Of a stretch of DNA of 64,000 nt, positions 3,454 to 53,903 are shown piece by piece. Origin of the DNA: Siphonodentalium dalli (Eukaryota; Mollusca; Scaphopoda; Gadilida; Siphonodentaliidae); the NCBI GenBank assembly GCA_032622095.1, contig CP136066.1:112179319-112243318 (forward strand), in the 5' to 3' direction. Numbering within the stretch: position 1 is the first letter of the stretch; every line of letters starts with the position of its first letter. The notes beneath the pieces are model-generated. The model saw only the letters and a program-made list of their open reading frames with translations. It was not told where the DNA came from and made no database searches. The position numbers and the translations under genes were made by a program.

Positions 3454-3457
3454 TTAA

Positions 3458-3703
3458 CTCTTTCTTTACTGGAGATTCTTGAAATTTTGCAAAAACCCTG
3501 AGCCAATGCATTCTCTTATATATGTCTGGTGCCTCGAATATATAAGAGAATATGCATTGGCCTAACAATATTTACCTTGATATTTTAAGCCAGTGCATTC
3601 TCTTATATATGCGAGGCTCCCTATGGGAGACTGGCATATGTAAGAGAATGCACTGGCACAGGATATTTAATGCTGCACCAGAGCAGCTTTCATTATGAAA
3701 GGG
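3458..3703. mobile_element. Family A TTAA-flanked MITE (two hairpins, reverse orientation)
   Basis: TTAA at 3454-3457 and 3704-3707. Two ~65-bp hairpins (3513-3572, 3592-3654) separated by the family spacer CAATATTTACCTTG. Ends GCTGCACCAG...GAAAGGG. Confidence 0.85.
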
Positions 3704-3707
3704 TTAA

Positions 3708-4216
3708 CTCTTTCTTTATACATGGATTCTCTCATTCATTTACAAAATTATAAGTTATAAGGTCTATTATTCATTGGAGAGGTACTCATGAAAAATGAGC
3801 CAATGACAGACAGAAGAATTGATAATACAAGTGCAAAAGGAGTCTTATTGATTGGCGGGAAATGTTTAGATATTAACCCTTTCACGATGGGAGCTGCGCT
3901 GGTGCAGCATTAAAGATCCTGTGCTAGTGCATTCTGTTATATATGCGAGTCTCGGATAGGGAGCCTCGCATATATATAAGAGAATGCACTGGCTTACAAG
4001 GTCAAGGTAAATATTGTTAAGTCAATGTATTCTCTTATATATGTGAGGCTCCCTATGGGAGACTCGCATATATAAGAGAATGCATTGGCACAGGGTTTTT
4101 GCAAAATTTCAAGAAGCTCCAGTCATGGAAAGGTTGTCCAACAAACAGCCTATGACTTAGTATCTGAACATTTCCTAAGGGAACTACTCGTCAAAAAGTA
4201 TTTAGTAAAGAAAGGG
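3708..4216. mobile_element. Family D TTAA-flanked MITE with a nested family A copy
   Basis: TTAA at 3704-3707 (shared with the preceding A copy) and 4217-4220. Ends CTCTTTCTTTATACATGG and TATTTAGTAAAGAAAGGG are inverted. A family A element (3877-4133) sits at an internal TTAA. Confidence 0.8.
3877..4133. mobile_element. Family A MITE nested in family D
   Basis: Begins CCCTTTCACGATGGGAGC after TTAA (3873-3876) and ends CAGTCATGGAAAGG; the right TTAA is decayed to TTGT. Two full hairpins at about 3926-3993 and 4023-4088. Confidence 0.85.
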
Positions 4217-4513
4217 TTAACATTCTCATGATCAGTGGAAGCGAAAGAAGACTTTTGGCTCTAACACTAAACTAATCTACCAACAAATTTTCTTAATTTT
4301 GAGCACCATTTGAGAGTTGAGGTGATTATGAATACAGTGCATGGAGATGAAGGTATGTTAATTATGGGCAAAATGTTCACAACTTCATAGCACCAAACAA
4401 CCCTGGTCTTCACAAGAGATAGTGAACACCTATGTAGCATTTATCCAATATGTTGAAAACATAGTCATTTGGAAGACTGAACCCAGAATATATGCTGATA
4501 AAACAATCCTTAA

Positions 4514-4849
4514 CCCTTTCATGATGGGAGCTACGCTTGTGCAGTATTAAATTTACTGTGCCAGTGCATTATCTTATATAAGTGAGTCTCCCATAGGGAG
4601 CCTCATATATAAGAGAATGCACTGGCTTAAAAGATCAAGGTAAATATTGTTAGGCCAATGCATTCTCTTATATATTTGAGGGAGCCTCGCATATATGAGA
4701 GAATGCACTGGCTTACAAGGTTAAGGTAAATATTGTTAGGTCAATGTATTCTCTTATATATGCGAGGCTCCTGGGAGACTCGCATATATAAGAGAATGCA
4801 TTGGCACAGGGTTTTCGCAAAATTTCAGGAAGCTCCAGTCATGGAAGGG
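4514..4849. mobile_element. Family A MITE with three hairpins
   Basis: TTAA at 4510-4513 and 4850-4853. Carries three hairpins (4560-4624, 4656-4711, 4740-4804) instead of two, with the spacer GTAAATATTGTTAGG repeated. The third lost CTAT from its loop. Confidence 0.85.
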
Positions 4850-4853
4850 TTAA

Positions 4854-4955
4854 CCCTTTAAGTGCCAAGTCCGAATTTTGTATCAACCCATATTTCCTTG
4901 ATCATTTTTCAAATTTATTGATTATAATAATGTGATACATTGATGGATAGAGCTC
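4854..4955. mobile_element. Family B-like MITE end sharing a TTAA with the family A copy
   Basis: Starts CCCTTTAAGTGCCAAGTC immediately after TTAA 4850-4853 and runs into GATCATTTTTCAAAT and GATTATAATAATGTGATAC, a block found again at 50157-50228. The far end is not defined. Confidence 0.6.
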
Positions 4956-5613
4956 TAAGAGACACAAGGCACCTGCAGTGGGTAAATGTGCAAAAAATAA
5001 AAAAAGTCTGTAATAACATCACCACTAGGAAGAACATTGAGAAACAGATAAACTTTGTTCTTATATTCATTTTTTGTTGGAATTTCTCATTTATAGATAT
5101 ACTATTAAACAAAGTGGTTACAGTGATATGTCAACTAAAATCGCTAATCGTGTAGTGTGTTCAAATATTATAATCTGAATATCATTTTAAGAATATTTTT
5201 CAATGCGTTGACCATTTCCAATGTTTACCATCAAGTTTTGATTAAACTTTGGTATCTTATTAATATTTAACTTTTATTGGTAATTCAATTCTAATTGTAG
5301 TATTTTATTACATAACAATGGTTTTGACATGCAATATCTCATTCTTGGAGACTGTGTTAACTATTTTTTCACGTAGATGTCGATGATTTGTTTTACAGCT
5401 ATTTTATGTTATTTCACATGAACCCACGTACAAGGCCTGGAGTCCATTTGATCTGATTGTACAGGTTACTGATGCTAGACAAGCCATTCACTTCTTTGAA
5501 GACAGACCAGGATGCTTGATACGATATGGCCATGGCATATGACTTCTTCACTAGACCACAGCACATGGCTTTTATACACATTTGGCTATTAAAATGAAAA
5601 CATGTGACATTCA
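4956..5613. other. ITPK downstream flank / probable 3' UTR
   Basis: AT-rich. From 5613 down to about 5270 it is the likely ITPK 3' UTR; the rest shows no gene. Confidence 0.4.
5273..5309 (-). promoter_or_regulatory. Candidate ITPK polyadenylation signals
   Basis: Two AATAAA hexamers lie on the minus strand at 5309-5304 and 5278-5273, about 305-340 bases after the ITPK stop. Hexamers are common in AT-rich DNA, so this is only positional support for a ~300-nt 3' UTR. Confidence 0.35.
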
Positions 5614-5805
5614 CTAAAATTTGTCCATCATATTAATGATTTTATCGAGTCCATATAGGTAACCATCCTCATTGTTGCCTTCAATCCACTGCGATCTGTG
5701 GTCTAAATTTCTGTTTGCTGGTAAATGGCTCGTCTTCCCGAAATCTATCATCCAGATATTGGCTGTCTTGTTTGTGTGAACGAATAGAAGAGAGCTACCT
5801 ACCAC
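5614..5805 (-). CDS. ITPK: ITPK terminal coding exon (SSLLF, IDFGK)
   Basis: The acceptor is cctttcag; the exon starts with Val-Val-Gly in phase 0 and ends in TAG at 5616-5614. It holds [21 protein letters not shown] and [15 protein letters not shown], the C-lobe with the metal-binding IDF motif. The usual ITPK C-terminal tail is a few residues shorter here. Confidence 0.95.
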   Translation of the reverse strand: MVGSSLLFVHTNKTANIWMIDFGKTSHLPANRNLDHRSQWIEGNNEDGYLYGLDKIINMMDKF

Positions 5806-8800
5806 CTGAAAGGAATGGAAAATTAGATTAGAACTTAAAAGGGTACTCTACACTAAATCAGGCCATTTATGGGACCATCTCCTTTTATACTCAACAGACT
5901 ATATGCAACAAATGAATGAATTTGAGCCATAGATTAGTGCAAAATACACTCATGTGCTCTATGAATGATGCGAACAACATGGTAATTATAATTTGCCAGC
6001 CAATCACTATCGGCCTTGAATATGGGGCAGCGCTGCGCATGCGCGGACTAAGACAACCTTAGTTGTGCTTCTAGCGTTCGCGGAGACAGCCGCAAAAAAT
6101 AATTATTGTAAACACGTGGTGTTTCCTCAAAAAATAATTATGTCGTTAGAAAAAGCTGAGGCCAATGCAGTTGGCGAAATACGACCAGCTCCCGACAATG
6201 TTCTGCCTTCATTAAAGAAGGGAAACTCGTCTGCCAACCCATTAAAGGGTAAGCAGAAAGCCACTTTGGTGCCGGTTGCCTCGAAATTGGAAACCCGAAC
6301 CAATCCTAGCGACTCGCAGAGCGCGGAAATTCTGCGCAACTTAAAGCAGATTATGGCTACCCAAAGTGAACAGGGAACTAAAATAGTCGACATCGCCCAT
6401 CGTTTAGTTACTGTGGAAAATTTCCAAACATTTGACTATTCGGGCAACGCTGAATACTATGGTAATGGGTCGGAATTCACCGATGACCCGATTGTTCATG
6501 TTGATGACCCTATCGAGGGAGAAACGACCAGGCCGACGAGCAGTCGTTTTCAAACTTTTTAGAAACGTCTGAAGGCTCAGGAGACTTTGGGCCCCAATAT
6601 TTAGCCAATTCTTGCTGAATCTTTGACTGATATGTTTCGCAAAGGCATCGATGAAGACCAATATCGTTCTCTGACTCGTGACGAAACAAATCCTCGTCCT
6701 GAAAATTGTGAAGGACTCAAAATGGTGCGAATAAACCAACTTGTTTGGGACTTATTGTCGCCTCCAGTTCGCACACATGATGTTAAGCTCCAAAATGTGG
6801 AAACATCAGTTATCAAGACTGCCGTAATCCTGACAAAAGTGACCGATTCGGCTGCCCAGTTGGAAACTGCCCATCTATTGGTCCTGTTATTGACCAGATA
6901 AATGATGCGTTGGCACTTCTCGGCCATGGCAATTTTCAACTCAACATGTTCCGGCGCGACCTGTTGAAACCGGATCTGAACTCTGAATATGCACAAATGT
7001 GCACATATTCCAGACCATACACAAATTTCCTCTTTGGTGATGATGCATCAAAAACGGCGCAGGAAATTAAGGATACCTCAAAACTTGGAAGCAAGATGGG
7101 TTCTGTTGGTACTGGTCATCAAAACTTCTCATCACGTGGCCGCGGCCGTGGTGGACGAATGAGAGGCCACTCAGGGCAGATGCACCAATATTCAAGACAA
7201 AGTTTGAGTTCAACACATCCATACATGTATCCAAAGGAGCGAAAACACTCCAGGCGGGGGAGCCACTAGGGCTCAGCTCGCAGATAGATCCAATATGTTA
7301 AACTCAGGTATGTGAACTATATATATATATTTCTGATAACTGTAAAAATGAAGAGTTTTTTTAAGGTTGTTTGAGTAAATTTGTTCAAAATTGGAAATTA
7401 TTGACACGTGACCCATTTATTTTAGATGTTGTTCAGCATTGTCACCTTGAATTTGATGAGCGTGGCCCACCGACACAGGAAATTGGGCATTACGTTCAAA
7501 ATCAAGTTAAAACATCTGAGATTGACCTGGTTGAGCTTGAACTTGAAAAACTCGCACGGCAAGGGGTGATAATCAGTGTCCCCAAAACTCCAGGTCAATT
7601 TATTTCACCAATATTCATCCGGCCCAAGCCAGGAACCAATGAAGTTTGGCTGATTTTAAATTTGAAAAAATTCAATGAGTATGTGCCATACCATCATTTT
7701 AAAATGGAGACATTTGAGTCTGCTCTGTCTCTCATTAAACCACGCATGTACATGGTGTCCATAGATATTCGTCATGCTTATTATTCTGTGAATCTTGCTG
7801 ACCAACATCAAAAATATTTTCGGTGCCGCTGAAAGGAAATAGTTTATCAATATACTTGCCTTGCTAATGGATACGCGGCGGCACCTAGGTTATTTACAAA
7901 ACTGTTCAAACCTGTTTTTTTCTACATTGAGATTAGATGGTTACACTAATACGAGTTTCATAGATGACACCCTCTTAGTAGGGGTCACCAGGTCACTGTG
8001 CATCGAAAATGTTCATGCCACTCCCTCCTTACTCACTAGCCTGGGATTTGTTATCCATCCAACTATTAAAGTCTGTAACAATCCCCACGCAGGAGATAAC
8101 TTACCTTGGTAATGTTATCAATACAGCCACCATGACCGTTTATTTGCCACCTGAGAAACAAGACAGTCAATGACTGTGGGGGTCGATCACCTGACTGTAA
8201 AGACTGAGAAGACTGGGACTCTGAAGACTACAACAGTCAGTAATTGTCAAAAGACAAGTAATTCTAAACAGGGACATAGCTGATGGTTCTCAGATGAGCA
8301 AGGCTCTTCACCTTGAAATTTTTAATTAAGTTCACAAAATTCCTTTTGCACATCCCTCTTAGAATGAAATTTTACAACTGTTACCAGTACTTCAAGCTTT
8401 CAAACTTGGAAATTTCCAACCTGACATCCCCCCATAAAGTTAAAATTTGTGGCCATTTCGGTCCTACAGTTTAACCCAAAGTAGGAAAATATGGACTGAT
8501 ACTGGTTGAAAAATCAAATGTAACACTATCAGGCATGAAATTTCTAACTGTTCGAAAATTTTGATCAAATTATGGGGGGGGGGGGGGGGGGGGGGGTCAA
8601 AACCCCACCCCCTCTACACTTCCGCCCCATTGCCCCCCCCCACCAGGCAGCTTAGAAATCAAGAGGAATCTATACATTATTATACCAGTATAAAAAAGCA
8701 CAGGTGGGGTGGCTGGTTGATAATTAAATCTCTTATCTCCGCCCCTATTTGAACAAACGTGAATCTCCATCTATGAGATCCATTCATTTGGTAATTTCAG

Positions 8801-11800
8801 ACGGTAGATTTTAATAGTTGAACTGAACTGATTTTCCTAAAATTTCCTAAAATAACCCCAAATCTGAACAAATCTAAACCCCAGTCACCGAAGGACCCTC
8901 CATACCAAACATAAGCTAAATAGGCCCGATGGTTCTTGAGAAGAAATTGTTTTAAGAATTACTATGGAAGGAAAGAGTTATGGCTCTGGCTTCTCACCTA
9001 TTTGACCTGATGAACTCATTTGAACAAATCTGAATGTGAGTCATCTAGGGGACATCCACACCAAAATATATAAACCCATTTGGTCTTTAATATGTATCTG
9101 GAGAAGAAAACAATTGATGGATGGATAGATACATAATGACAGATGGATGGATGGGAGAACAGTCTGACATAGAGACAGACAAATTCAATTCAATATACCC
9201 CCCAAGTTTTCTTTGCAAAATCAGGATATAATGAGTTGAACTGGAAACTGGTGGTTAAGTAAATAATATTCGAACAGCCAAGTCTGAACATAGTGTCTGA
9301 CATTTGCAATGCAGGCTAGCATCACCAAATTCACCCTCTGGGGACCTCATTCTGTTTAGGCCTCAACTGCTATGGGAGACATAGCATCAGATTGAAGTTC
9401 TCCAGTTAAAGTTGGTGATGTGCACCCATTGGGCACCTCAATTATGCATTTTATCTTCTACAAATTAGGGGATATAGAAACTAAATAGAAGGGAAAAAGT
9501 AAGTAAAAATGTCAATTTAAGACCCTATATATTTCCCAGAAGATGAGGCCTAAGCAGAATGAGGACCATGGCTAGTGTATTTGGTGATCCTAGCCTGCTG
9601 TGCAGGGTAGCATAACTAAATTCACTCTCTGGGGACCTCATTCTGCAAATGTCAGACACACTAAATTGAGGTTTGAGAACAATAATTTGTTTTGATTTGA
9701 TTTTAATGACACACACTGGCATCAGTGCTGGCTAAGCATTTGTTCACACCTGTCAGCCTGATAACATCTCAATTGATGACTGTGTATTTATATTAACTCT
9801 CTCTCTCTGTCTGTAGCTAATACAATTGACTGAATCTGCTGGTGGGAGAGATCCTGTGAGTTATGAGATGGGGTGGGATGCTGTTGGTTGGGGGCAGGGT
9901 GGTGGTCTGGGTCATGTGGGGGCGAGGGTGATGAAAAGGGAAAGTTTCCATGATTTCATTAAAGATTTTCATAACTCTGTGAATGTTTTTTTTTTGGAGT
10001 TATGTCCCTGGGTCCACCCCTATTTGACCCAGTGACCCCATTTGAACAAATCTGAACCCCAGTCATTCAAGGACCCTCCATACCAAATATAAGCTAAATC
10101 GGCCCAATGGTTCTAGACAAGAAGTCGTTATAAGAATTACCAAGGAGGAATATAGTTATGGCCCTGGTTTCGCAACTAATTGACCTGGTGACCTCATTTG
10201 AACAAATCTGAATGTGAGTCACCTAGGGAACATCCACATCAATTATGAACCCATTCGGTCTTATGGTTCCGAAGAAGAAGATGTTTAAAGAATTGTTGAC
10301 GGACAGACGACGGACGAGGAGTGATGACTATAGCTCCACCGGAGACTTCGTCTCAGGTGAGCTAAAAACTGAAGGTACAACAGGCCTGTTCTGACCTTTT
10401 AAAGTTCAATCATGCCCCAATCCGAGCTGTGGCCAGAGTTATTGGGCTGATAATTTCTACCTTCTCAGCCGTTGAGTATGGAAATTTACATTATCGTCAG
10501 CTTAAAATAAACAAAATACAAGCCCTTCAGCACAAATGTGGTAATTTTGATGCGAAAATGGCTGTCACAGACCCAATGAAGGTCGAATTCCAATGGTGGA
10601 CCACTAATGTGGCAACCCAAGTGCGTCGCATCGAACACATGCTGTCCTTTCTGGTGTTACTGTTGGCGGCCGCTGGTCCGTACAGGAGAGTGGCATGCAA
10701 ATAAATAGCTTGGAACTCCTAGCAATAAAATTTGCCATCCAAGCCTTTATTTCCGATTTGATAGGAAAACACATTCTAGTGTTAACAGATAGTACAACAG
10801 CTATGACCTATGTCAAGAACATGGGGGGTGTAAAATCATATCTGTGTAATGACATTAGTATACAAATTTGGGAACTATGTCAGTCCCATGGCATCTGGTT
10901 ATCATGTTCACACATACCTGGGTCAACTAATGTGGCGGACCTACCTTCACGGCAATTTAATGACCGCTTAGATTGGCAGTTGAATGACAAAGTATTCACT
11001 GACATTTGTAATCTTTGGGGTTCCCCCACAATTGACCTCTTTGCATCACGCCTGACCACAAAGGTGGCGGCATATTGCTCCTGTGAAAGAGACCCGGGAG
11101 CCAGCCACATTGATGCATTTACAATACATTGGGGAAACTATAAGTTATGCTATCTGTTTCCTCCTTTCAGCTTAATCGCTCGCTGCATACGAAAGATTAC
11201 ACAAGATCAGGCCACCGGTCTTATCATCCTACCGGTGTGGCCCACACAAACATGGTTGTCGGTGTTGATGCTGAGTTTGACCAGCCATCCACGTCTACTA
11301 TCAATCCGTGCAGACCTGTTGAGGCACTCCGCGAAAACTGACATTACATCCTTTGTTTCCGCATCCTCAACTGATGGCTTGCCAAATCTCAGGAGTCAGT
11401 TCCAAAATTCAGGATTTTCAGCAAGCGCTACCGAAATCCTCATGTGTTCCTGGAGACCATCAACGAAGCCCCAGTACTCAGCTTATATTAAGAAATGGTT
11501 TAGGTTCTGCAATGAGCATCAGAGTCATCCATTTTCACCATCTGTACCGGACGTAGTTGAATACATGACGTCGCTGTTTCATAGTGGTTTGGGCTATAAT
11601 TCGCTAAATTCCGCGCAGTCAGCACTATCTGCTATAGGAATCCGGCTAGACCAGTTTCCTGCTGGAGCAAACCCTACTATTATTCGTTTTATGAGAGGTG
11701 CTTTCAATCTGCGTCCACCTGCTCACCCAACAGCCATCACTTGGGATGTAGACGTAGTGCTGAGATTATTGAGAACGATGTCGCCAGTTCATCAATTGAG

Positions 11801-14800
11801 TTTGAAGGACCTGACCATGAAGTTAGCCATGATGGCGTCTCTTTTGCATGCAGCGAGGGTGCAGACATTACATTTGTTGTCACTTGACGGCAAGCGAAGT
11901 ACGCGATCTAAGTTTTTATTTTACATAAAAGGGTTATTGAAACAAAGCCGAGCCGGCTATACACATCAGAGTGTGGAATTTAGTTCGTATCCTCCTAACA
12001 GGAGATTGTGTATATATACAGTTTTAGTTGAATATTTAAGGAGAATGCAAGGACTGCGTCTTGATGAGGATTCATTGTTTATCAGTTTAATACGTTACAC
12101 CGCATAAGAGAGTGACTAAAGCCACCATTGCTCGATGGATATGGACATTGATGTCCAAAGCAGGCATAGACATAAGTGTGTTTAAGGCCCACAGTGTGCG
12201 AGCAGCAGCATCGTCAAATGCATTCACCATAGTCCCCATCAAGGAAGTTATGGCGAAGGCAGGGTGGAGCCAAGAATCTATGTTCTATAAATACTACCAC
12301 AAGAGAGTAGTCAAGGATCAAGGATTTGCAGACGTAGGGGAGTCATAATTTGTTCTCACTATTGGCTTTGAATCCCCATATTCAAGGCCGATAGTAATTG
12401 GCTGGCGAAATATAATTCTAAAAATAAATAAGACTTACCTTGGTAAGGTGAAGTTCATTTTTAATTATATGAGACATCAATCACACCCTCCCAACCTTAA
12501 ATACCAAATAGTCTCTGAATCGCCAGCCAATCACTACCGGTATGGTTCTAAATTACTATAGAAAACATTTCGATACAAAAGACATTTGCTCGTTGAGCAA
12601 GTTACACATTCATTTTAATAGCTCGAAAAAATTTGGCTGTCAAAACTGAGGTTGTCTTAGTCCGTGAATGCGCAGCGCTCCCCCATATTGAAGCCCTCTG
12701 TGATTGATGTCTCATATAATTCAAAATGAACTTCACCTTACCAAGGTAAGTCTTATTTATTTTTAGAATTATAATGAAAATGAATTTATGGCTGTTGTTT
12801 TACATCATTCGTAAAGTAAATGAGAGTATTTTGCACTCATCCATGGTTCAAATTCATTCATTTGTTGCATGTATTCTGTTGAGTATAAAAGGAGATGGTC
12901 CAAAAAATGGCCGGATTTAGTGTACAGTACCCCTTTAATATGCATTCAATGTTTTTTGGAAATAATGTTGTCTGCTAATTTTTTCCTGAACACTACTCCA
13001 AATAAATAATAAACCATTCCAATATTACTTTTATGCCAGGTTCCCAAAACAATGCTCTTACTATTAGATGATATTGCTCCTAAATGAACATACCATTGGG
13101 AAGGGGGAAGGGTTAATACCATTGTTAAAACTCTTGTGAAATGCCATACATGCCAACATTTATTTGAACACCATAATGCTTAACCCTTTCAGTGCCAGGG
13201 GCCGATCTCATCGGTCCTAATTTACAGTCTGTAAAATTGGCCCTAAAAAAATAAAAAACATTGTTTTTTTTAAAGATTTTTTAAAATTATTAAAATTGTA
13301 AAACATAATAACAAATGATGAAAATTTGTTAGGCCAACAATGCATTCTCTTATATATGCGAGGGGACCTATGGGGGGTGGGGTATCTATCATTCCGCCTT
13401 ATATTGATAATCCGGCCTTGTCAATGATAATCTGGCCTTGTAAATATAATGGTGGTACGAGCTATGTTGTGACTGATAAAAATAGTATTAGAGACACCAT
13501 AATAACAGAACAAACATGATGAACAATGAGGTAAGTGCACATATTTTATATATCCACATCATAGAGGTGATATTCTGCTAGCATCGATATTTTATAAATG
13601 ATGTTTATCACAATTTTAGCTAATTATGCAGAATATACCATAGCAATTCCATTTTTTTTTCCAGGCAAATGGGTTAATCAAAACAAATTATATGATGCCA
13701 ATAGACATGTTTGTATGCTTTGTAATGTAAACAAACATCAAAAACATTACAGAACCATTTGTTTATAGACAAACACTCGGAACTACCGGATTGTTCAATA
13801 AAAATGTTCCATTGCGCTGTGGAAGGCGAAGATAAAATTATTGGTGCTATCAACAATCGCATTCAAATCACACCAATTTGTATTTTAATCGACTAATTCT
13901 ACCTGCTGTCAGTTCAAGATCCAGCTAATTAACATTATTTCATGATTGGGAAATGATCAGACAGAAAACTTGTACATAATATAATTGTTCTTGCAACAAG
14001 ATGAATATTTTTCAATCCAGTTAGTGTTTTCTCCAATCATATATATGGTAATACATACCAAATGAGGAATTTATTATGATAGTATTGTGAGTTGTATGTT
14101 GTAGACGCACCAAATTAAGGGTTTTACAACTGATGTATAATGCGCGCAAATCTAAATAAGGAAATGATGCAATATCATGACTCTGCTTTTAAACAATTCA
14201 CTGCACTTTTTGCGAAAAACTAAACAACATTTGACATGCATTTTCTCTGACACAAAGCATGTGTTGTGAATAATATAGAATTCTTATCATCATTATGCTA
14301 TACTAGAATATTCTTGAATGAAGGCCACCCGTCCCTTTAACTAAGATCAATATTGCATACCTAAAAAATATTTTTCAAAAAGTTGGGGGCGAGGCTAATA
14401 GCGAGCAAGAGTTTAAATGCGGCACTCTACAGTACTCCTACAATACTATTACTTCCATCATCAATAAATTCTAATGAGCAAAATGTCTGAATTCTGTGAA
14501 CTATCATGGGCAAGATGACTTAAATGAAGCATGTTGAATCCCCCACAATAAAAACTCTTCTCTGCTACAATACTGTACTCCAATTGTAACATATGTTTAC
14601 ACCAACTACGATGAAGATTTTCAACTTATATCAATATGTTTTGCTAAAAACATATTGATGAATTAGAATTAACAGTACTTTTATGAAGTTTCCTGTCTGT
14701 TGCTGTATCCAAAATTTGGATCCATCCTTCTTTCAATTTTGCAAAATGTATATATACTAGTTTTGATCTTATTACTGATGTATTGACATTGTCATGTCTT

Positions 14801-23800: not shown

Positions 23801-26800
23801 TGACAGTGGCTAGCATTATTTTGTTGCAATAAATTGATTCTGATAACTAAAGCGTATTTTGAAGAAATGTTGTTGTTGTATTTTGATGATATGGGAACCG
23901 TCTGATCGGATTGAGTACCTTTAAGGAATGGGACATATGGCTGTCGTTTTGTGTATAATACCGAGTAAATGCATATCACATGCACATAATACCCATAACT
24001 TCCCAATGAGACCATGATAAGTTAATGCTATCTTCAGCCATACAACCAAGGGACCCTTTATGATACTCTAAGGGACTTGCAATGATTGGTGTTTCATTTA
24101 TGACGATAGAGTACGTTTATGTACCAAATATTTCTGATCATTATTTGCAAAGTTATTACATATGGATTTTTAAAAGATACTCTACCGGATTTGACACCAT
24201 ATCCACTACCACTGGTACGTTTTCTATCCCGAATAATTACATCACACCCATAAGCCCATTAATAGCAGGTTTTGATAGCCATATAATGACTTTCAAAAGA
24301 GGAAGGTTAAGTAAATTTTGGATTTTTATCAGGCAATTCAAATGATTGTCTCTGAAAAAAGTGTCCATGCTTTCGTTTCCCAAAAGTTGTAGAAAATAAA
24401 GAGCGTTCTCAATTAAGATTTTTTGTACTTTGTTTTCAATGAAAAGTTAAGGATGTTTTTGTGGATTTCCACGATGCCTATGCCCTATGAATGGTGGTGT
24501 TTGTAAGTTTTTTCATTTGCTTTCTGCCTGCATGTTAAAATGGAAATTGATTGGTATCAAATCGGACCACGCATCTTTAAATAATGCAGCTTCCAATCTG
24601 ATAATGATGAGAATCTAACACTATACCTTGGTGTCCTGCGATTTGGATCCATGGATATTTGCGTTTCTTGAATTGTTGGACGAAAGGAGACCAGTATAAT
24701 ATTTGGCGTATTTTCCTCCATGAGCTTTTCTGTAAAACAAAAGGATGAGAATGCGGTTATATTCAAAACTGTTTCTAAATTTTAACTGGTTTTATAAGTT
24801 ACAAGCTAAGCAAATACAATTAGTTGAATAGGCAAGTTTTTGTTATTTCCATGATGATTAGACATAAATGTATCAATATTAACCCTGGCAGGTAGAGCGA
24901 AATTTATGTGGTACAGTTGGTTGCTGGAACGACATTTATGTTGTTTACGGTAGTTCTAGGGTAAATATTTTACAGTGCAAATAACTTCGAAAAATCATTT
25001 CCTAAATGGGAACTTTATCGGTTTGTTGAAAGTATAATCTGAACTTTTCCCACCAGTGAATATGAATCCTTCTGTACTTGTACTATTTATTCATGTCTAT
25101 CGTCTGCTCATTTTTCTAGACACCCCTCCAAATGAATCATAGACTATTTCGATTCTCTTTACTTTTATAACTGATGAGAGAATCCATTTTAATAGTAACT
25201 TTTATGATATCAAGAAAATGTAACAAAATGCTTTCTACAGCGACTCGAGAATATTTGAGGTGAAAAATTGTATAATTTCGATCAGATTTAATAGTATAAT
25301 ATGAATTTATCAGTCAGATTCAATCTACATTGGAAACGGGACAAAATCCTACAAATGGAATGTCAATCTGTCAATCACAGTATAGAAATTGACACCTCAA
25401 TCAGCTGCCTCAATTAAAAGTTTTGTTGTTGTTGATATCTCACAAGCAAATATAAACTGTATTTACAGGCCAAGAACTAAAACAAATTTCACAATGGATC
25501 ATGCCACACAGGGTGAAAGTAATAGTAGTGAAAGGTAGTAGTGTATGCATTATTTATGCCTACAATCACTGACTATCTAGTTACACCCAAATATGGCTTG
25601 TTGCCATTCATCGGAATCCATTCACTGAGAGCTTTCCGATGAATGGCAACAAGCCATATTTCCGACTAAATCCTGAAAAATTACCCATTTCTGCTGTGGT
25701 TAAGGAGTCGATTATTTAGGGCATTACCATATATTAAGAACAGGCTGTGTGTTATTCTGGATGGGTTTAGTATGGTTCAGTATATCAGCATTTCAGTCGC
25801 TATGCCATGACGGCATTGTCAGTATTACAGGTGGAGGAATCAAGAATCAAGTCTGCAAATAGTGTGTCTGTTATTAGCAGAATGAGGTCCCCAGAGGGTG
25901 ATTTGAGTGACACTATCCCACAGGGAATGATAGCATCACCAAATTCACTGTCTGGGGACCTCATTCTGCTTAGGCCTCATCTTCTGGGAAGAATCAATAG
26001 TCTCAAATTAACATTGTTTTTAGTTACTTTTTCCCTTCTCTTCAGTTTTTATATCCCCCAGTTTGCAGCAGAAGATAAAATGCATAATCAAGATGACTAA
26101 TGGGTGAACATCACCAACTTCAACTGGGGAACTTCAATTTGATCCTACGTCTCCTATAGCAGTATTCCGGTGTGCAGGATAGCGTCACTAAATTCACCCT
26201 CTGGGGACATCATTCACCAAATAATTTCACTGGAAAATCACTGTAAAAACCAAGGACTGGACCACTTATGTTGCCCTATTAAATGAGCAATGCACGTTAC
26301 AAATTAAACCACCAGGGTGGAATGGGGGTTTGGCAGTGTTGGGGTGCTGTGGGTGGTTTAATCCCCTCCCGAATGGGTTATAATTTTGAGATTGTGATTA
26401 ACTCTCCTAACTGATTTATTTCATTTATTTATTGTTAGTGGACTGAAAATGAAGAAAGTTCCCCCCATACCCCAGCTTAGTCATCCTCTCACAAGTATCG
26501 TTTAACCCTTTGAGTGCCAGGGGCCGATATTATCGGCCCTAAACCTACACAATAAGTCTGTTAAAGAATATAATAAAATATATTAAAATTGTAAAAAATT
26601 GTAAAAAAAAAACAAAAAAACAAAAAAAAAACAATAAACCAATGCATTCTCTTATATATGCGAGGCGACCTATGGTCGACTCGCATATATAAGAGAATGC
26701 ATTGGCACAGGGTATATGGGTTGATACAAAAATCGGACCTGGCACTCAAAGGGTTAAAGTGAGCCAAGAAATGATTTTCGTAGAGATACAAGATGTATAA

Positions 26801-29800
26801 CAAACTCAAAAACCAGTTCACAAACACGAACATATAATCCTAGCTTATATCTCTGACAGAGCGAAGAGCCCTGATCAAGCTATGAAACTATAATAATTAT
26901 GTGGTAATATACAGAGTCATACTATGCAGTCAGGCTCTGTCATGCATACCTTTAATATGCATCAGACTGACTTGTTGGAACAAATGAAGGACATATGTTA
27001 TACATCAATGTATACCTCTATCATCTTGACCCACTTAATGTAAAAACAAATTGAAAGGCTTTAAGCTACACTTAAACAGCCTAGGTGTCCTTACAATGTT
27101 CAATGTATTCATGATATGAACATTAATGACTTCCTTCATGTACATTATTTCCAACTGTCCAATTAAATTAGCATTACCTACTTTAACCCTCTCTTTACTG
27201 AATGCATTTTTCTTTCAGTTATGGAAGTAAAGTACGTACATTAAGCAGATGAACGACAGACACACAGATAATACATGTGCCAGGAATTCATTGGTGGGAA
27301 ATGTTCAGTCTTATTATCTGAACATTTCCTAAGTATTTAGTAAAGAAAGGGTTAATAATAGCTGATAATAATAATTGATACATTAATATAGTAAACTAGC
27401 TGATGTGCCCGACTTTGTCCGGGCTATATAGGGCTTTCTTTGTGATCGCCTCTGTCTGCATGGGCAGAATATACAGAGTCGATCAGTCCAGAAACATGCC
27501 TATATGAGCGTATATGAGCGACGTCAAGGACATGGTTGCACATGAAATTGGACCTGCTCATATCATTCCCGGGATCAAAGTAGGCCTACGTGCCAAACTT
27601 TAGGCGGCTCGGTCGAGATCCAGAAACATGCCTATATCAGCGTATATGAGCGAGGACACGGTCGCACATGAAATTTGACCTGTCCATATTGTTCCCGGGA
27701 TCAAAGTAGGCCTACATACCAAATTTGAGTTGGATTGGTTGAGCGATTTTTGAGTCTATAACACACACACATGCATACATACATAATGAAGTTCCAGAAT
27801 ATATAATTGAAGAATATAGAGTGAAATAGTTTCAATCAGATGTATTTTAGATGCGGTCATATTTAAATCTGGAAATTGACTTCAAACCAGTGCATTATTT
27901 CAGCGTACTTTAATAATCATCCATTCCATGGAATAATGGAGTTATTATCCTATATGATGCATTATTCAATTATAAGCATGGCTATGACCTCATTCCTTTG
28001 TTCAATAGGTCCAGTTTATAGCATAATGGATGGTTATTGTCAAGATAGTATATTAATTTACAAATAATGAACATATTTCAGGATGTTGTTTAATGCCGAC
28101 TGTACCTAAATTCAGCTATTTATGGGGCCATCTTCTATGCTATTCAACAAAAATATGCAACAAATGAAATAATTGAAGTCAGGGATGAGTGAAAAATACA
28201 CTAATTTACTCTATGAACTATGTAAAACAACATGAAAATTATAATGAAAATTAAGCCTTTTACTCATTTTCATAGTAATTATTAGATCATACCATGAATC
28301 TCATCATTGACTATCGCCTGGGCTGAGTCAGTACCTCATACACTGTAATATATAATTAACCCCTTCACTGCTCAATGATGTCATGACATTGTGGGCTGGG
28401 CAATTGGCATTGACGTTATGGTAATTTTACAGTGGAAAATTCAAACTGGAATATTGCGAATATCATAAAACTATCTCTATTCAAGGGCTATTAATGATCA
28501 TACACAGTCCTAGAACAGTGTACACCTTTCAAATATAGAGATACACTGGTTGTGATCCAGTGAATTCTGAGTTCCTGTTGTGAATGGTCGACTGTTAGTA
28601 GCTGAAATGGGTCTGAAGGTGTAACGGACCATATAGCATATTATGTAAAGTTTTACATCTGAAATAGTTACGGATGTCATAGAAGCTAAGAGATTAACTG
28701 CTAACGGTAACAATAATCATGGGTTTTCAAATCCTCTCTAACAGCAAATGAAAGACTTGGCGTGTCTTTTCTGTCACGAATGATGTCTCATGGCAGCAGA
28801 GGTGTAGGCATAGGTGTAGAAAACTAGGTGTAACTCGCCAATTCCGTGTCTGACTAAAGTGACACAGGTGCTTGCTAATTGCTTTGAATCACCAACCCAT
28901 TGATTCCTCTCATCCACATGCAGGCGGGAGATATCATGTTTCTATCAACGAGCAGTCTGCATTATACAAACTATAGGCAGAAATAAACACCAACATTACG
29001 ACCAGGTGACATTCTATTCAATAATAAAGATAGAAAGTCTCCTGGTTTAATGAATGACAAATTCGAAGGTTTTACAATCATTGACGTAAACAGTTTCTAT
29101 TTTCATCCATTTGAGTATTTTTGTCATAACTGACTGACAAAATTCAGCTATTTTTGAACTGAAAAATGAAACCTAAAAACATTGATGAGCAAACAATAAT
29201 GAACTCTAATTTAAGCTCTTTGTCGTGCTGTACTATCAGTTGCCTTTTGAGTTGAGAATAGTGTGGTGAAATAAAGAGATAAAGTAACCCATTGATAACT
29301 GGATACTTACTGATGATTAGTTACTCAATTCCCAGTCAATCATTTCTGGGAATATTTAGACAATATGGTAAAAAATAATTTCAAATTTTTATAACAAATG
29401 AATGAATGGATTCAACAAGCTGACTATGTCCTTACAAATGAAAAATAAACTACTATCATATAAACTTTTAGAACTTTGTGAAAACCCTGTGCCATTGCAT
29501 TCTCTTATATATGCAAGTCGCACATAGGAGGCCTTGCATATATAAGAGAATACATTGGCCTAACAATATTTACCTTGGTCTTGTAAGCCAGTTCATTCTG
29601 TTATATATGTGAGGCTCCCTGTGGGAGACTCACATATATAAGAGAAACCACTGGCACATATTTAATGCTGCACCAACATAGTAGGGTTAAAGGTGGCACA
29701 TGGCCTTCGTAAACAGCAGTAAGATACGTACCATTCCTGGAAATTGCAATAAATGTGGGACTGTCCCAATAGGACTATTAAAGGCCACCCTACCCCCTCC

Positions 29801-34988: not shown

Positions 34989-34989
34989 T

Positions 34990-35019: not shown

Positions 35020-35020
<1 letters not shown>

Positions 35021-37043: not shown

Positions 37044-37047
37044 TTAA

Positions 37048-38455: not shown

Positions 38456-38460
38456 TGAAA

Positions 38461-39221: not shown

Positions 39222-39225
39222 TTAA

Positions 39226-39582
39226 CCCTTTACCCAACAGAACGGCCCTGTGCCAATGCATTCTCTTATATATGCGAGTCGACCATAGGTCGCCTCGCAT
39301 ATATAAGAGAATGCATTGGCTTAACACATATTAAAGAAAAAATGGTAAAAAGTGTTAAAAAAAAGTTTTTTTTAGGCCAATGCATTCTCTTATATATGCG
39401 AGGCGACCTATGGTCGACTCGCATATATAAGAGAATGCATTGGCACAGGGCATAACTGTAACTATCACAATGTGCTCAATGGGCCGGTTCCAATGATACC
39501 CATATTTCCATGGTTTTATTGAGACAGACCGAAGATAATTTAGGCTGTTAGGGCGTTTCTGGGCGTTCTGTTGGGTAAAGGG
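39226..39582. mobile_element. Family C TTAA-flanked MITE (two hairpins)
   Basis: TTAA at 39222-39225 and 39583-39586; ends CCCTTTACCCAACAGAACG and CGTTCTGTTGGGTAAAGGG. It carries two copies of the shared hairpin (39252-39321, 39376-39443) in opposite polarity. Confidence 0.9.
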
Positions 39583-39586
39583 TTAA

Positions 39587-41237: not shown

Positions 41238-41480
41238 TAATCTTCCTGATATTTTGCGAAAACCCCCTGTGCCAATGCATTCTCTTATATATGTGAGTCT
41301 CCCATAGGAAGCCTCACATATATAAGAGAATACATCGGCCTAACAATATTTACCTTGTCATTGTAAGCCATTGCATTCTCATATATATGCGAGCACCCAA
41401 TGGGAGACTCACATATATAAGAGAATGCACTGGCACAGGATCTTTAATGCTGCACCAGCATGGCTCCCGTCATTAAAGGG
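41238..41480. mobile_element. Family A MITE, left end lost at the family L border
   Basis: Two hairpins (41270-41335, 41365-41434), right end CCCGTCATTAAAGGG with TTAA 41481-41484. Confidence 0.8.
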
Positions 41481-41555
41481 TTAAGTCTATTGAGATCATG
41501 TAGCAAAATACATTCTCCTATCTTAGAAGCCTTATCTGAACTGATATGATTTATA

Positions 41556-46730: not shown

Positions 46731-46736
46731 TGTATA

Positions 46737-46917: not shown

Positions 46918-46920
46918 TAG

Positions 46921-46975
46921 GTCATAAATAGGGCTTCTTCTGCACATTTATTAATTTTTCGTCCGCATTATCACC
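46921..46975. repeat. Family D fragment
   Basis: GGGCTTCTTCTGCACATTTA matches the D copy at 47435. Confidence 0.5.
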
Positions 46976-46979
46976 TTAT

Positions 46980-47434
46980 CCCTTTCATGACGGGAGCCGT
47001 GCTGGTGCAGCATTAATGATCCTGTGCCAGTGCATTCTCTTATATATTCAAGTCTCCCATTGAGAGCCTCACATACAGTAATGCCCTAATTAATCGACTC
47101 CTTTAACCACAGCAGAATTATCTTAGTCGGAAATATGGCTTGTTGCCATTCAGAACTAGTCGGAACTAGAGCTTTCCGATGAATGGCAACAAGCCATATT
47201 TCCGACTAAATCCTGAAAAGTTACCCATAATTCTGCTGTGGTTAAAGGAGTCGATTAATTAGGGCATTACTGTATATAAGAGAATGCACTGGCTTACAAG
47301 GTCAAAGGTAAATATTTTTAGGCCAATGTATTCTCTAATATATGTAAGGCTTCCTATGGCAGACTCACATATATAAAGAGAATGCATTGCACAGGTTTTT
47401 CGCAAAATTTCAGGAAGCTCCTGTCATAGAAGGG
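46980..47434. mobile_element. Family A MITE interrupted by a family E MITE
   Basis: CCCTTTCATGACGGGAGCC to GAAGCTCCTGTCATAGAAGGG. The first hairpin is split at CACATA|TATAAG by family E (47076-47272). The second hairpin is at about 47320-47390. Confidence 0.85.
47076..47272. mobile_element. Family E MITE nested in a family A hairpin
   Basis: TA at 47074-47075 and 47273-47274; removing E and one TA restores CACATATATAAGAG of the A hairpin. Proves the TA duplication and the ends CAGTAATGCCC / GGGCATTACTG. Confidence 0.92.
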
Positions 47435-47659
47435 TAAATGCTTTCTATACTAAACCATCATTGATGAGTGATAGGAAAAGTTCAGATAATAAGTTCAACA
47501 AACAACCATAAACATTTCCCTAAATAAATAGGGCGTCTTCTGCACATTTATTTATTTGTCATCTGCTTTTATCACTTTAACATCCCTCCAAATGAATAAT
47601 AGATCATTCCAGTGTATACTTTATAACTGAATGGGAGAATACATTCAGTATAGAAAGGG
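47435..47659. mobile_element. Family D MITE
   Basis: Ends ATGCTTTCTATACTAAACC and TTCAGTATAGAAAGGG, right TTAA 47660-47663. Abuts the family A copy at GGGTAAA, where the joint TTAA has probably decayed. Confidence 0.75.
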
Positions 47660-47663
47660 TTAA

Positions 47664-48620: not shown

Positions 48621-48824
48621 CTCATTATACATTCTATGGGAGATATTCATTATTCAGGTTAATAGATGCATGTACTCATATCCAGATACATTTATTAACT
48701 AAGCCCTATTAAATTCACCTGTGGAGGTTACTATACAGACACATTGTTTGCACCCACCCCCCCCCCCCTTTCCACTAACTCAATCATAGTGATCACATTG
48801 CACCACTGTGCTCTGAATAATTAA

Positions 48825-49058
48825 CCCTTTGAGTGCCAGGGGCCGATATTATCGGCCCTAAACCTACACAATAAGTCTGTTAAAGAATATAATAAAATAT
48901 ATTAAAATTGTAAAAAATTGTAAAAAAAATAATAAAATTTAGGCCAATGCATTCTCTTATATATGCGAGGCGACCTATGGTCGACTCGCATATATAAGAG
49001 AATGCATTGGCACAGGGTATATGGGTTGATACAAAAATCGGGCCTGGCACTCAAAGGG
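48825..49058. mobile_element. Family B TTAA-flanked MITE
   Basis: TTAA at 48821-48824 and 49059-49062; nearly identical to 26506-26753 apart from the A-rich tract. Probably a recent copy. Confidence 0.9.
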
Positions 49059-49298
49059 TTAAATCTATTCATGATTCCTGTGTGGTACGTTCACACACAC
49101 TTCCAAATTTATAAGATCTAGATTACTACATCCCAATATACTCCCAATGACTATAAATATAATTAAAAATATGCTTTATGTTCATGGTAGAGATCTAATT
49201 TAGCTGTACATGTATACATGAAACTTGGATATTATTATATGTATGTCAGAGTTTATACTAAACAAATGTTCAAATTTAACAAAAGACTTGAAGATATA

Positions 49299-49488
49299 CA
49301 GTAATGCTCTAAATAATCGACTCCTTATAACCACAGCAGAATTATGGGTAATTTTTCAAGATTTATCGGAAATATGGCTCGGGGAGAGCTTTCCGATGAA
49401 TGGCAACAAGCCATATTTCCGACTAAATCCTGAAAAGTTACCCATAATTCTGCTGTGGTTTAGAAGTCGATTACTTAGGGCATTGCTG
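49299..49488. mobile_element. Family E palindromic MITE, centre shortened
   Basis: TA-flanked; left inner arm partly deleted (ATATGGCTCGGGGAGAGC). Confidence 0.85.
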
Positions 49489-49496
49489 TATGGTGG

Positions 49497-50150
49497 CAAA
49501 TTTGAACCAACAACTATGGGTGAGATATCTGCATGGACGTGAAAAAACCCCAACATTTTCATAGAAACAAAGATAAATAACTGTAGAATGGAAAACATGA
49601 ACAAAACAATTGAACACTCAATTGATTGCCATCATAATAGTGAACATCCATACCAAATTTCATTGATATCCGTCAACCGGTGGTGGAGATCTGGACAAAA
49701 CAACTTCCAAATCTACAGAGATGAATAACTCTAGAAAGGAAAACTGGAAAAAAAAAAACGATTGAACACTCAATAAAATGACTGAACAATCAAGTGGTTG
49801 CCGTCATTGTAGTGAACATCCATACCAAATTTCATTGAGATTCGTCAACCGGAGGTGGAGATATCTGCTCGGACGGACAAAAAAACATTTCCAGATAAAC
49901 TAAAATGAATATCTCTATAATAGAAAATTTGTAAAAGACGATTGAACACTCTGTTGAATGCCCTCATAGTACTGAACATCAATACCAAATTTCATTCAGT
50001 TCCAACAACTGGTCTTTGAGATATGTGCCCGGATGGACGGACGGACGGACAGAAAAAACGGAGGGAAAGATGTCCAGATGGACAGATGGAAGATTGGACG
50101 AGGTCAATCCAGTATACCCCCCATTCTCTTTGAGATGGGGGGTATAATTA
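49497..50150 (+). mobile_element. Family I tandem-unit element
   Basis: Three to four ~165-bp units with GTGAACATCCATACCAAATT; GGACGGACGGACGGACAG tract; ends CAGTATACCCCCCATTC ... GGGGGGTATAATTA. Confidence 0.7.
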
Positions 50151-50156
50151 CTTATT

Positions 50157-50228
50157 TTGTATCAACCCATTGATCATTTTTCAAATATATTGATTATAAT
50201 AATGTGATACATTGATGGAAAGAGCTCT
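50157..50228. repeat. Fragment shared with the family B-like end at 4854
   Basis: TTTGTATCAACCCATTGATC and GATTATAATAATGTGATAC are nearly identical to 4873-4950. It stops where the non-LTR fragment begins. Confidence 0.6.
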
Positions 50229-50858
50229 ACAGCTTATCGGGCCCGACAGAATAAAGGAAATATATCATGGACTAGTAGTCACTTTAGAATTTAGTTCCAA
50301 CACAAGATATTCCAAGTTGGTTGAGGGTGTCAGACTTCAAAATTATATTACTTTCAACTTACCCTTGTATAAACATTCAGCATTGACTAAATTCTGCATA
50401 AGTGCACATGTGCTTATGAGCGAGGTAAGAAAATATTATAAGCCAATAAAAGATTATGATGAATGTTATTGTCCAAATTGCAAAAAATAAGTTGAAAATG
50501 AAGAACATTGTATTCAAGAATATGCACTATACAATAGCTTGAGGGAAAATTATGAACCTATATTTAACAGCACGGAGGATATATCAACTGAATCTATTTT
50601 AAATCCGACAACATATTGGGATACAAACCTAATCTGTGATGTTATTAAACATATATGCCTTTGAATAAACGGAAGAAGAAAGTAGATAAGGACAGTAGAT
50701 AACTAACATGAGCTCATTCTTGTCTGATGGTAACTATATATGTCTATAGACAGCTATATTTATATGCAGAATGTATGTAAAAAATATATATTTGTATGTA
50801 TTTGAATAATGCAAACATGTTTTAACTTGGGCTTTTTTCAATAAAGATTGATTGATAA
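50229..50858 (+). pseudogene. 5'-truncated non-LTR retrotransposon ORF2 tail
   Basis: The frame reads HSALTKFCISAHVL, CPNCKK, stop (TAA), VENEEHCIQEYALYNSLREN and ends at TGA near 50664. KHSALTKFRxSxHxL...CPxC...VEDExHFLxxCPxY is the zinc-knuckle-like end found after the RT in many non-LTR elements. A 3' UTR ending CAATAAAGATTGATTGATAA follows. An in-frame stop and missing RT make it inactive. Confidence 0.7.
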
Positions 50859-50967
50859 ATTTACTGAGTGGGAAATGATAAATGTTGAGTATTATCTGTG
50901 TCAATACATCAGGGTTTCCAATACTTATCCAGGATTTTGGAGAATGTTCAGACCTTAAAACAACAAG

Positions 50968-52160
50968 AGATGGACTGTCGTCCGGTGCATACCCCCTCTT
51001 GGCATACCGCCTAGTGTGGGCACATCTATAACTTATGATGGCTATACTCAGACATATGGACTCAGAAATCAGCATTTTCATATAAACAAAGATGAATAAC
51101 TATAGAACAAAAAACTAAAACAAACATTTGAATGTGCCATTAAATGTCCTCATAGTGGTGAACATCCATACAAAATTTCATTGAGATCCGAGCATCACTG
51201 TTCAAGTTATGAGCTGAACAGACATCGGATGGACCAAACAGCCAACATTCCCAGATAAACAAAGATGAATAACTCTAGAATGGAAAAGCGGAACAGAACA
51301 ATGGAACCCCCTATTGAATGTCCTCATAGTAGTGAACATCCATAACAAATTCCATTGAGATCCCAGCACAACTGTTGAAGTTACGACATGAACAGACACC
51401 AGACGGACCAAAAAGCCAACATTTCCAGATGAACAAAGATGAATAATTCTAGAATGGAAAAGCGGAACAAAACAATGGACCCCTCTTTTCAATGTCCTCA
51501 TAGTAGTGAACATCCATACCAAATCCCATTGAGATCCCATTACAACTGTTGAAGTTACGACATGAACAGACACCAGACAGACCAAATAGCCAAAATTTCG
51601 AGATAAACAAAGATGAATAACTCTAGAATGGAAAATCCGAACAAAACGATGGAACCCTCTATTGAATGCCCTCATAGTAGTGAACATCCATACCAAATTT
51701 CATTGAGATCCGAGCACTACTGTTCAAGTTATGACATGAACAGACACCAAACGGACCAAAAATCCAACATTTCAAGATAAACAAAGATGAATAACTATAG
51801 AATGGAAAATCCTAACAAAACGATGGAACCCTCTATTTAATGTCCTCATAGTTGTGAACATCCACACCAAATTGGGTTGAGATCCCCGCACAACTGTTGA
51901 AGTTATGACATGAACAGACACCAGACAGACCAAAAAGCCACTATTTCCAGATAAACAAAGATGAATAACTCTAGAATGGAAAATCCAAACAAAACGATGG
52001 AACCCTCTATTTAATGTCCTCATAATAGTGAACATCCATACCTAATTTCATTGAGATCCGAGCACTACTGTTCAAGTTATGACATGAACAGACATCTGAC
52101 GGACGTACGGACAGGCGCAAAACAGTATACCCCCCTTTTTTTTAAAAGGGGGTATAATAA
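50968..52160 (+). mobile_element. Family I tandem-unit element, long copy
   Basis: Starts ACAAGAGATGGACTGTCGTC; six to seven ~173-bp units (AGATAAACAAAGATGAATAA, CCATACCAAATTTCATTGAG); GACGGACGTACGGACAG; ends CAGTATACCCCCC ... GGGGGTATAATAA. Twice the unit number of the copy at 30448. Confidence 0.8.
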
Positions 52161-52965
52161 TATTCCAAAGATTTCCACACAAGCCACTCACAAAACAAAA
52201 ACAAATACTTTAAAGTGTATTCCTGTAATTCCATAAATGTTCCAGACACCCGCCAAAGAGAGGTGAATTTTCACAAAACTTTTGCAATAGTGAGGTACAA
52301 AAAATACCATCTTCTATGATTTTTCCAGAGATACAGATATAATAAATTCCTGGATTCCAGACTGACTTGAATATGAACCCTGAGTATATGGCCATACTTT
52401 TTCAAACTTCTTCGAGAAAGATCTATTGAACATGAACACACAAGCTTGGCCCCATGCTTCCTGCCTTGCAAATAGTCTAGGCCTGTCAAAAATTATCCCC
52501 AGCTCTTCCAAGATTTGCAATGATAACTACAGATCTACACCACAAAATTTTACTATTAAATCCCCAATACAATTAAGATGTAAGTAAATATGAGTACATG
52601 TGTCTGGTAGGCAATAGACCTGTTATCAGTTCCATCACACATCATATAATACTTGCATGACTAGAATGACGTCTTTCTTACGTCAGTAAACTAAATCTGT
52701 CCCAAATTACACCCCAAATATAGAGTATGATGTGAAACACACAGGATTTTCACCACCTTAAATTAACACTATCAGAGAGAAAAAGAGTACATATTAATTG
52801 AACCATCACTGCTTTGAAGTAAAAAAATTTAAGTCATGATTATAAGTGTTCTGTCAAGAACATTGTCCTAAACAAAAATTTAATGTTCTGCACTTAATTG
52901 AGTTTGTGTAGGTCAACATGACTGAAGTGTATTTTTCCTCATATGAGTAGATTTGCTAGAAGCTA
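52161..52965. other. No recognised feature
   Basis: Overlapping 60-70 codon minus-strand frames at 52210-52520 have no recognisable similarity. Confidence 0.35.
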
Positions 52966-53178
52966 CAATAATGCCCTAAATAATTGATTCCTTAACCACA
53001 GCAGAATAATGGGTAACTGTTCAGGATTTAGTCGGAAATATGGCTTGTTGCCATTCATCAGAAAGCTCTCACTGAGAGCTCTCCGATGAATGGCAATGAG
53101 CCATATTTCCGACTAAACCCTGAAAAATTACCCATAATTCTGCTGTGGATAAGTAGTCGATTAATTAGGGCATTACTG
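52966..53178. mobile_element. Family E palindromic MITE, complete
   Basis: ~213 bp, TA-flanked, centre TCACTGAGAGC. Confidence 0.9.
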
Positions 53179-53645
53179 TAGCTATATGACGAAGGGGTGA
53201 CAAGTTCACCAGCGTACCATCATTAGAGTGTTATTATTTTTAACAAAATAAAAAATCACCAAATACAAATCCCCCCAAAAAAGATGGTTTTCTCAGGGAG
53301 TAAACAAAAGTTCTGTGTGTCAAGAAAAGGGAGCAACTAGGTGAAAAAGTAATATCCGTCGTCCATATTCATGTTCCACATCAGTAAAATATGGGTAACA
53401 ATATCCTAAAGTTTAACTTTTCTACATTCAAAACACAATAAAGGTAGCCGTAATGTGTCGACCACTAGGTGGCCAGTCAGATGGAGTCTGCATAAGGTCA
53501 TTTGTATAATCCCAAAAATTGAAATTAATTTTTCGGGGGACAAAAAAAGAAATTATCCCCAATCTCCCACCAGTCTACTGACAATAGCATGTCTGATAAT
53601 TGACCGACCCCCATATTCGAACTATACTAAAACCACATACCAAGT
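53179..53645. other. No recognised feature
   Basis: No shared repeat or gene recognised. Confidence 0.4.
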
Positions 53646-53649
53646 TTAA

Positions 53650-53903
53650 CCCTTCCATGACTGGATCTTCCTGAAATTTTGTGAAAACTCTGTGCCAATG
53701 CATTCTCTTATATATGCGAGTCTCCCATAGGAAGCCTCACATATATAAGAGAAGACATTGCCCTAACAATATTTACCTTGACCTTGTAAGCCAGTGCATT
53801 CTCTTATATATTCGAGGCTCCCTATGGGACACTTGTATATATAAGAGAATGTACTGGCACATGATCTTTAAAGCTACACCAGCACACTCCCGTCATGAAA
53901 GTG
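53650..53903. mobile_element. Family A TTAA-flanked MITE
   Basis: TTAA at 53646-53649 and 53904-53907; two hairpins (53694-53762, 53790-53857), reverse orientation. Confidence 0.88.

What the first reader, a model, noticed from the sequence alone, without database searches (positions are those of the whole stretch)
3513..53857. One ~66-bp hairpin module shared by three unrelated-ended TTAA families
About 20 copies of a hairpin with arms CCAATGCATTCTCTTATATA lie in families A, B and C, whose termini differ. The inner stem is CTCCC-TAT-GGGAG in A but CGACC-TAT-GGTCG in B and C: paired changes that keep the stem. This suggests module exchange among families and constraint on the folded form.
Basis: seen in the sequence. 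Interest (0 to 1): 0.8.

Follow-up and report, generated by a model that had tools for sequence, protein, structure and literature searches.

The report
Hairpin cassette shared among transposon families
A 67-base hairpin present at least 146,000 times in this animal's genome sits inside four sets of tiny parasitic DNA elements with unrelated ends; it has been swapped between them by recombination, but individual copies are not kept foldable, and a similar case is already known from corals.

Summary
The window has 39 hairpin arms (≤3 mismatches; 0.01 expected) and 17 hairpins of 57-69 bp plus one deleted copy, inside TTAA-flanked families A, B and C. The 2.23-Gb genome has 346,893 exact 20-bp arms and at least 146,269 hairpin cores.

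'Module exchange' is supported and widened. A fourth family, D, has TATA-flanked ends and 24,056 exact hairpin junctions. All four combinations of A/D end with A/B-type hairpin exist, and one tandem duplication switches inside the hairpin. Hairpin-free relatives of B show where the module begins.

'Constraint on the folded form' is not supported among copies. At the pair tested genome-wide, 2,970 hairpins carry one-sided changes and 45 the paired change; independence predicts 17. The A/B inner-stem difference dates from founders.

Extra finding: in family C the hairpin is about five times less diverged than the ends of the same copies (0.75% v 3.8%, 7 copies), meaning recent homogenisation or constraint in source elements.

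Coral CMITEs are a close precedent: piggyBac MITEs whose interior is better conserved than their ends (PMC2872659). New variant of a known kind.

The parts
1043..1203 (+). A element with deleted hairpin region (hairpin remnant 1119-1154)
   Evidence: ends and arms
3454..3707 (-). A element, TTAA on both sides, hairpins 3503-3560 and 3590-3656
3873..4137 (+). A element, hairpins 3924-3992 and 4022-4088; right-hand TTAA decayed
4510..4853 (+). A element with three hairpins (4561-4625, 4655-4711, 4741-4804)
4850..4920 (+). End of a hairpin-free B-like MITE (CCCTTTAAGTGCCAAGTCCG..CCCATATTTCCTTG), sharing the TTAA of the A element before it; right end not mapped
13180..13376 (+). B-like element with one hairpin arm (13337-13356), truncated
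26502..26757 (+). B element, TTAA on both sides, hairpin 26639-26705 (CGACC type)
29470..29691 (-). A element, one end truncated, hairpins 29492-29558 and 29588-29654
39222..39586 (+). C element, TTAA on both sides, hairpins 39253-39319 and 39377-39443 (CGACC type), AT-rich core between them
41243..41484 (-). A element, one end truncated, hairpins 41272-41338 and 41368-41433
46976..47438 (+). A element with decayed TTAA, first hairpin interrupted by a nested palindromic insert (about 47065-47264), second hairpin from 47323
48821..49062 (+). B element, TTAA on both sides, hairpin 48944-49010 (CGACC type)
53646..53907 (-). A element, TTAA on both sides, hairpins 53695-53761 and 53791-53857
57246..57350 (+). 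A element remnant with one arm (57297-57316)

Best explanation
The hairpin is the conserved internal cassette (CCCTGTG-hairpin, with or without an AT-rich repeat core) of a group of non-autonomous miniature transposons. Families A, B and C have TTAA target sites and CCCTTT ends and are most likely moved in trans by the many piggyBac-type transposases of this genome (inferred). Family D has TATA-flanked ends and probably needs another transposase (inferred). The cassette passed between families by recombination within the shared hairpin or core, which joins the end of one family to the hairpin of another; a few chimeric founders then amplified by transposition. Shown: four end types on one cassette, all A/D-end by A/B-hairpin combinations, and a switch inside the hairpin at one locus. 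Inferred: that this process founded the big families. After insertion, copies decay with no sign that pairing is maintained. The low divergence of the hairpin in C (and B) reflects recent spread, gene conversion, or constraint on the few source elements; the data do not separate these.
For: Identical 67-bp consensus in B, C and D behind unrelated ends. Every one of 69 sampled hairpins has one of seven outer flanks. Four combinations of end and hairpin type: A-A, A-B (L021), D-B (L031), D-A (L032). L032: 520-bp tandem units; the middle one matches its left neighbour from inside the hairpin rightwards and its right neighbour leftwards. L042 9429: C element with its two hairpins fused into one. 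Hairpin-free B relatives share B's end up to CCCATAT, then differ. At least 116 scored piggyBac transposase candidates, many with open frames. One-sided changes far exceed paired ones.
Against: The switch inside the hairpin was read at one locus only. No founder chimera was caught in the act, and the first joining of cassette and ends is not explained by hairpin-hairpin recombination alone. Hybrid inner stems are rare (53). The ends of the transposase-coding elements were not read, so the partners are inferred. D termini were read in two loci only.
Confidence: 0.6

Rival explanations
1. The hairpin, or its dyad symmetry, is a cis-acting element that raises amplification of source elements whatever transposase acts. 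Source elements are selected to keep it, while dead copies decay.
For: Hairpin less diverged than the ends of the same C copies, including shared (subfamily) changes 0 v 15. Three founder-level changes kept the pair. Coral CMITE authors propose a transposition role for their conserved interior (PMC2872659).
Against: A founder-level change that breaks a pair (7:61 in A-right) and tandem arrays with three broken pairs. In A the hairpin is about as diverged as the ends. Hairpin-free B relatives exist.
Confidence: 0.22
2. The cassette (CCCTGTG-hairpin-core-hairpin-CACAGGG) is a transposon in its own right that inserted into the ancestors of A, B, C and D.
For: In D it is flanked by TA on both sides (TTTTA/TAAAA), and B's hairpin-free relative gives a sharp boundary.
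Against: No target-site duplication around it in C or A; no stand-alone copy among 69 sampled hairpins; only 345 TTAA-CCCTGTG places and 1,738 with an unfamiliar next base.
Confidence: 0.12
3. One founder: all families descend from one recent element whose ends diverged; no exchange.
For: A, B and C share TTAA-CCCTTT and the CACAGGG-hairpin. B-type hairpins are young: the two CpG changes tested are each at about 1.1-1.2%.
Against: The ends are unrelated beyond CCCTTT, and D does not share TTAA, while the hairpin consensus of B, C and D is identical. A/D ends and A/B hairpin types occur in all four combinations. B has hairpin-free relatives with its own ends.
Confidence: 0.06

Closest known systems
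CMITE families of Acropora corals (PMC2872659)
   Same: TTAA target sites, CCCTTT-type piggyBac ends, several families with different ends around a better conserved interior (75 bp there), tandem arrays, interior of unknown origin
   Different: CMITEs are about 100 bp and about 1,600 copies; no hairpin is described for their interior; no carrier with another target site and no breakpoint inside the interior reported. Whether the two interiors are related in sequence could not be tested: the CMITE alignment is a figure that is not held
Galileo transposon of Drosophila (PMC3573991)
   Same: Chimeric copies with ends of different subfamilies, explained by recombination and conversion in the inverted repeats
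   Different: P superfamily with long terminal repeats and 7-bp target sites; exchange among subfamilies of one element, not across ends of unrelated families
Tetris foldback element of Drosophila virilis (PMC4079207)
   Same: Repeats inside an element expand into satellite-like arrays, as the 97-bp hairpin units do here
   Different: About 220-bp repeats within terminal inverted repeats; no hairpin module shared among families

Membership tests
piggyBac-type MITE (families A, B, C) | TTAA flanking both ends | tested here: met
   TTAA on both sides of most intact copies, e.g. 26502-26757, 39222-39586, 48821-49062, 53646-53907
piggyBac-type MITE (families A, B, C) | CC[C/T]T terminal motif in short terminal inverted repeats | tested here: met
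   CCCTTT/CCCTTC ends on both sides; motif as given in PMC2872659
piggyBac-type MITE (families A, B, C) | Ends shared with a piggyBac transposase-coding element | not testable with these tools
piggyBac-type MITE (family D) | TTAA flanking both ends | tested here: not met
   Ends TGTGACCCGCC flanked by TATA at L031 2986 and 3388 and at L032 8923
CMITE-like group | Interior better conserved between families than the ends | tested here: met
   Same 67-bp consensus in B, C and D behind unrelated ends; in C 0.75% v 3.8% divergence
CMITE-like group | Interior sequence homologous to that of CMITE | not testable with these tools
   The CMITE sequence is in a figure that is not held
Structure-constrained hairpin (as for a structured RNA) | Compensatory changes dominate over pair-breaking ones | tested here: not met
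   45 paired against 2,970 one-sided changes at one pair genome-wide; 28:6, 64:6 and 14:0 one-sided to paired in sequenced copies
Structure-constrained hairpin (as for a structured RNA) | Match to a described RNA family | tested here: not met
   No Rfam match in the window at gathering scores

The most novel reading that the evidence does not exclude
The palindromic cassette is a portable amplification element that works with more than one kind of transposase (TTAA-type and TATA-type), so that acquiring it lets an unrelated MITE family expand. Source elements would be under selection for its symmetry.
Probability: 0.15. Interest if true: 0.75.

Novelty: new variant of a known kind. Interest (0 to 1): 0.45.

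Why it matters
Most MITE families are defined by their ends. Here the interior is the stable part and the ends are exchangeable, at over a hundred thousand copies and across two target-site types. It resembles coral CMITEs and makes the open question 'what does a conserved MITE interior do?' testable, by separating source-level constraint from recombination-driven homogenisation. It also cautions that paired changes between consensus sequences of repeat families do not show constraint on folding: copy-level counts here point the other way.

Tried and rejected
Folded-form constraint on copies: rejected by one-sided versus paired counts. Arm-templated correction of the palindrome as a frequent process: rejected by the same counts, since it would turn one-sided changes into paired ones. 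CpG pair 23:45 in A: both sides decay independently, paired changes as expected from the margins. Structured RNA: no Rfam match. Relatives in viral contigs: none. A large minimal TTAA-CCCTGTG family: only 345 places. Literature searches for modular MITEs with different ends gave nothing direct until the subterminal-repeat search found CMITE.

Full report
WHAT IS THERE. The arm CCAATGCATTCTCTTATATA occurs 39 times in the 64-kb window at up to three mismatches, against 0.01 in shuffles. At up to five mismatches per arm there are 18 facing arm pairs: 17 hairpins of 57-69 bp and one deleted 36-bp copy at 1119, plus single arms. The 67-bp form has 26 outer pairs, a constant G.A mismatch, five inner pairs and loop TAT; as single-stranded DNA it folds at about -35 kcal/mol, z about -15.

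SCALE. The window is part of a 2.23-Gb, nine-contig genome. The exact 20-bp arm (A or G at position 4) occurs 173,648 + 173,245 times, with no match to the reversed control. The inner core GAGGCNNCCTATGGNNGACTC occurs 146,269 times: 126,861 with the B/C type, 10,121 with the A type, 9,287 others. Hairpins with other changes in this core are not counted, so 146,000 is a floor.

ANATOMY. I read the window, 20 stretches of 10 kb at set positions on all nine contigs, and loci around C1 arms. In 69 hairpins the orientation is fixed: the inner side reads TTAGG or TTGTAAG, the outer side CACAGGG or a near variant (CTTACAA in tandem A units). The outer flank is always one of seven: A-left, A-right, B, C-left, C-right, D, or the A tandem unit. 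The base after CACAGGG is A or G, unlike the usual flanks with a full CACAGGG, at only 1,738 places. Between hairpins, C, D, B and some A elements share an AT-rich core of 31-34-bp repeats whose alignments beat shuffles in most pairs; the usual 29-bp A spacer does not.

A FOURTH FAMILY. Family D has ends TGTGACCCGCCATATCAAATCC flanked by TATA, and its hairpin junction occurs 24,056 times exactly. It fails the TTAA test, so the cassette crosses target-site types. D termini were read in only two loci.

EXCHANGE. (i) A and D ends occur with both hairpin types: A end with A type (most A copies), A end with B type (L021), D end with B type (L031), D end with A type (L032 9346). (ii) L032 8300-10000 holds units repeated every 520 bp; the middle unit matches the third one to the left and the first one to the right, and the switch lies inside the hairpin. 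(iii) L042 9429 is a C element whose two hairpins have become one with loss of the middle. (iv) Hairpin-free relatives of B share its end to CCCATAT and then read TTCCTTGATC where B has A-CCCTGTG-hairpin. Hybrid inner stems are rare, 53 places.

FOLDING CONSTRAINT. At the inner pair G:C of the B type, left-only changes number 1,571, right-only 1,399, paired 45; independence predicts 17.3. So 98.5% of changes break the pair. In sequenced copies, one-sided against paired complementary changes are 28:6 in A-left, 64:6 in A-right and 14:0 in B/C/D; the A figures include subfamily mixtures. Between founders, pairs 29:39, 30:38 and 4:64 changed on both sides, while 7:61 in A-right changed on one side (10 of 13 copies) and the tandem arrays carry three unpaired changes. 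Occasional arm-templated correction would also make paired changes, so even the founder pairs are not proof of selection on folding.

THE HAIRPIN IS LESS DIVERGED THAN ITS CARRIER. In seven C elements picked by their ends, not by the hairpin, the hairpins have 7 changes in 938 bases and the outer ends 43 in 1,128 (Fisher p 2e-6). Private changes are 7 against 28 (p 0.003), shared ones 0 against 15 (p 1e-4). The window copy has 0 changes in 134 hairpin bases and 16 in 158 end bases. In A the two are similar (8.5% v 10.6%, five elements). With the identical consensus in B, C and D, this means that the hairpin spread or was homogenised more recently than the ends diverged, or that source elements are constrained. 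Seven copies are few.

MECHANISM. Most likely these are non-autonomous elements moved by piggyBac-type transposases (A, B, C) and another transposase (D), sharing an internal cassette passed on by recombination within the hairpin or core and then amplified from a few founders. The genome has 128 matches to the piggyBac transposase domain from 116 scored candidates, many in open frames; whether their ends match was not read. How cassette and ends were first joined is not shown.

KNOWN RELATIVES. Coral CMITEs are the closest: TTAA, CCCTTT-type ends, several families with different ends, a better conserved 75-bp interior, tandem arrays, unknown origin (PMC2872659). Galileo gives the precedent for chimeric copies by recombination in inverted repeats (PMC3573991); Tetris for internal repeats turning into satellites (PMC4079207), as the 97-bp hairpin arrays of L028 do. 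What this case adds: a palindromic module, the copy number, a carrier with a different target site, a breakpoint inside the module, and a copy-level test that goes against folding constraint.

Noticed in passing
window 6065-12107: Remnants of what looks like a DIRS-type retroelement: reverse-transcriptase-like and recombinase-like frames by eye. The only Pfam match at E 0.001 or better is to the Dam methyltransferase family, below its cut-off.
   Followed up: partly
window 47065-47264: A palindromic element with ends CAGTAATGCCCTAATTAATCGACTCC, apparently flanked by TA, inserted inside a hairpin of an A element.
   Followed up: no
L028 248-528 and 1722-2005: A 33-bp tandem array made of the A-family end with its TTAA (TTAACCCTTCCATGACTGGAGTTACCTCCCTTA, 8.6 copies), next to a 97-bp hairpin array.
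   Followed up: partly
G000:C1:742214-926242: Hairpin arms recur at fixed spacing of about 14.56 kb and then 11.17 kb: large tandem duplications that carry hairpin elements along.
   Followed up: no
L050 363-432: An A-ended element with a third paired inner stem, CAACC/GGTTG, and the AT core; 45 such stems (with loop TAT) exist genome-wide.
   Followed up: partly
window 51202-51696: A 164-aa open frame of internally repeated sequence on the minus strand; not examined.
   Followed up: no
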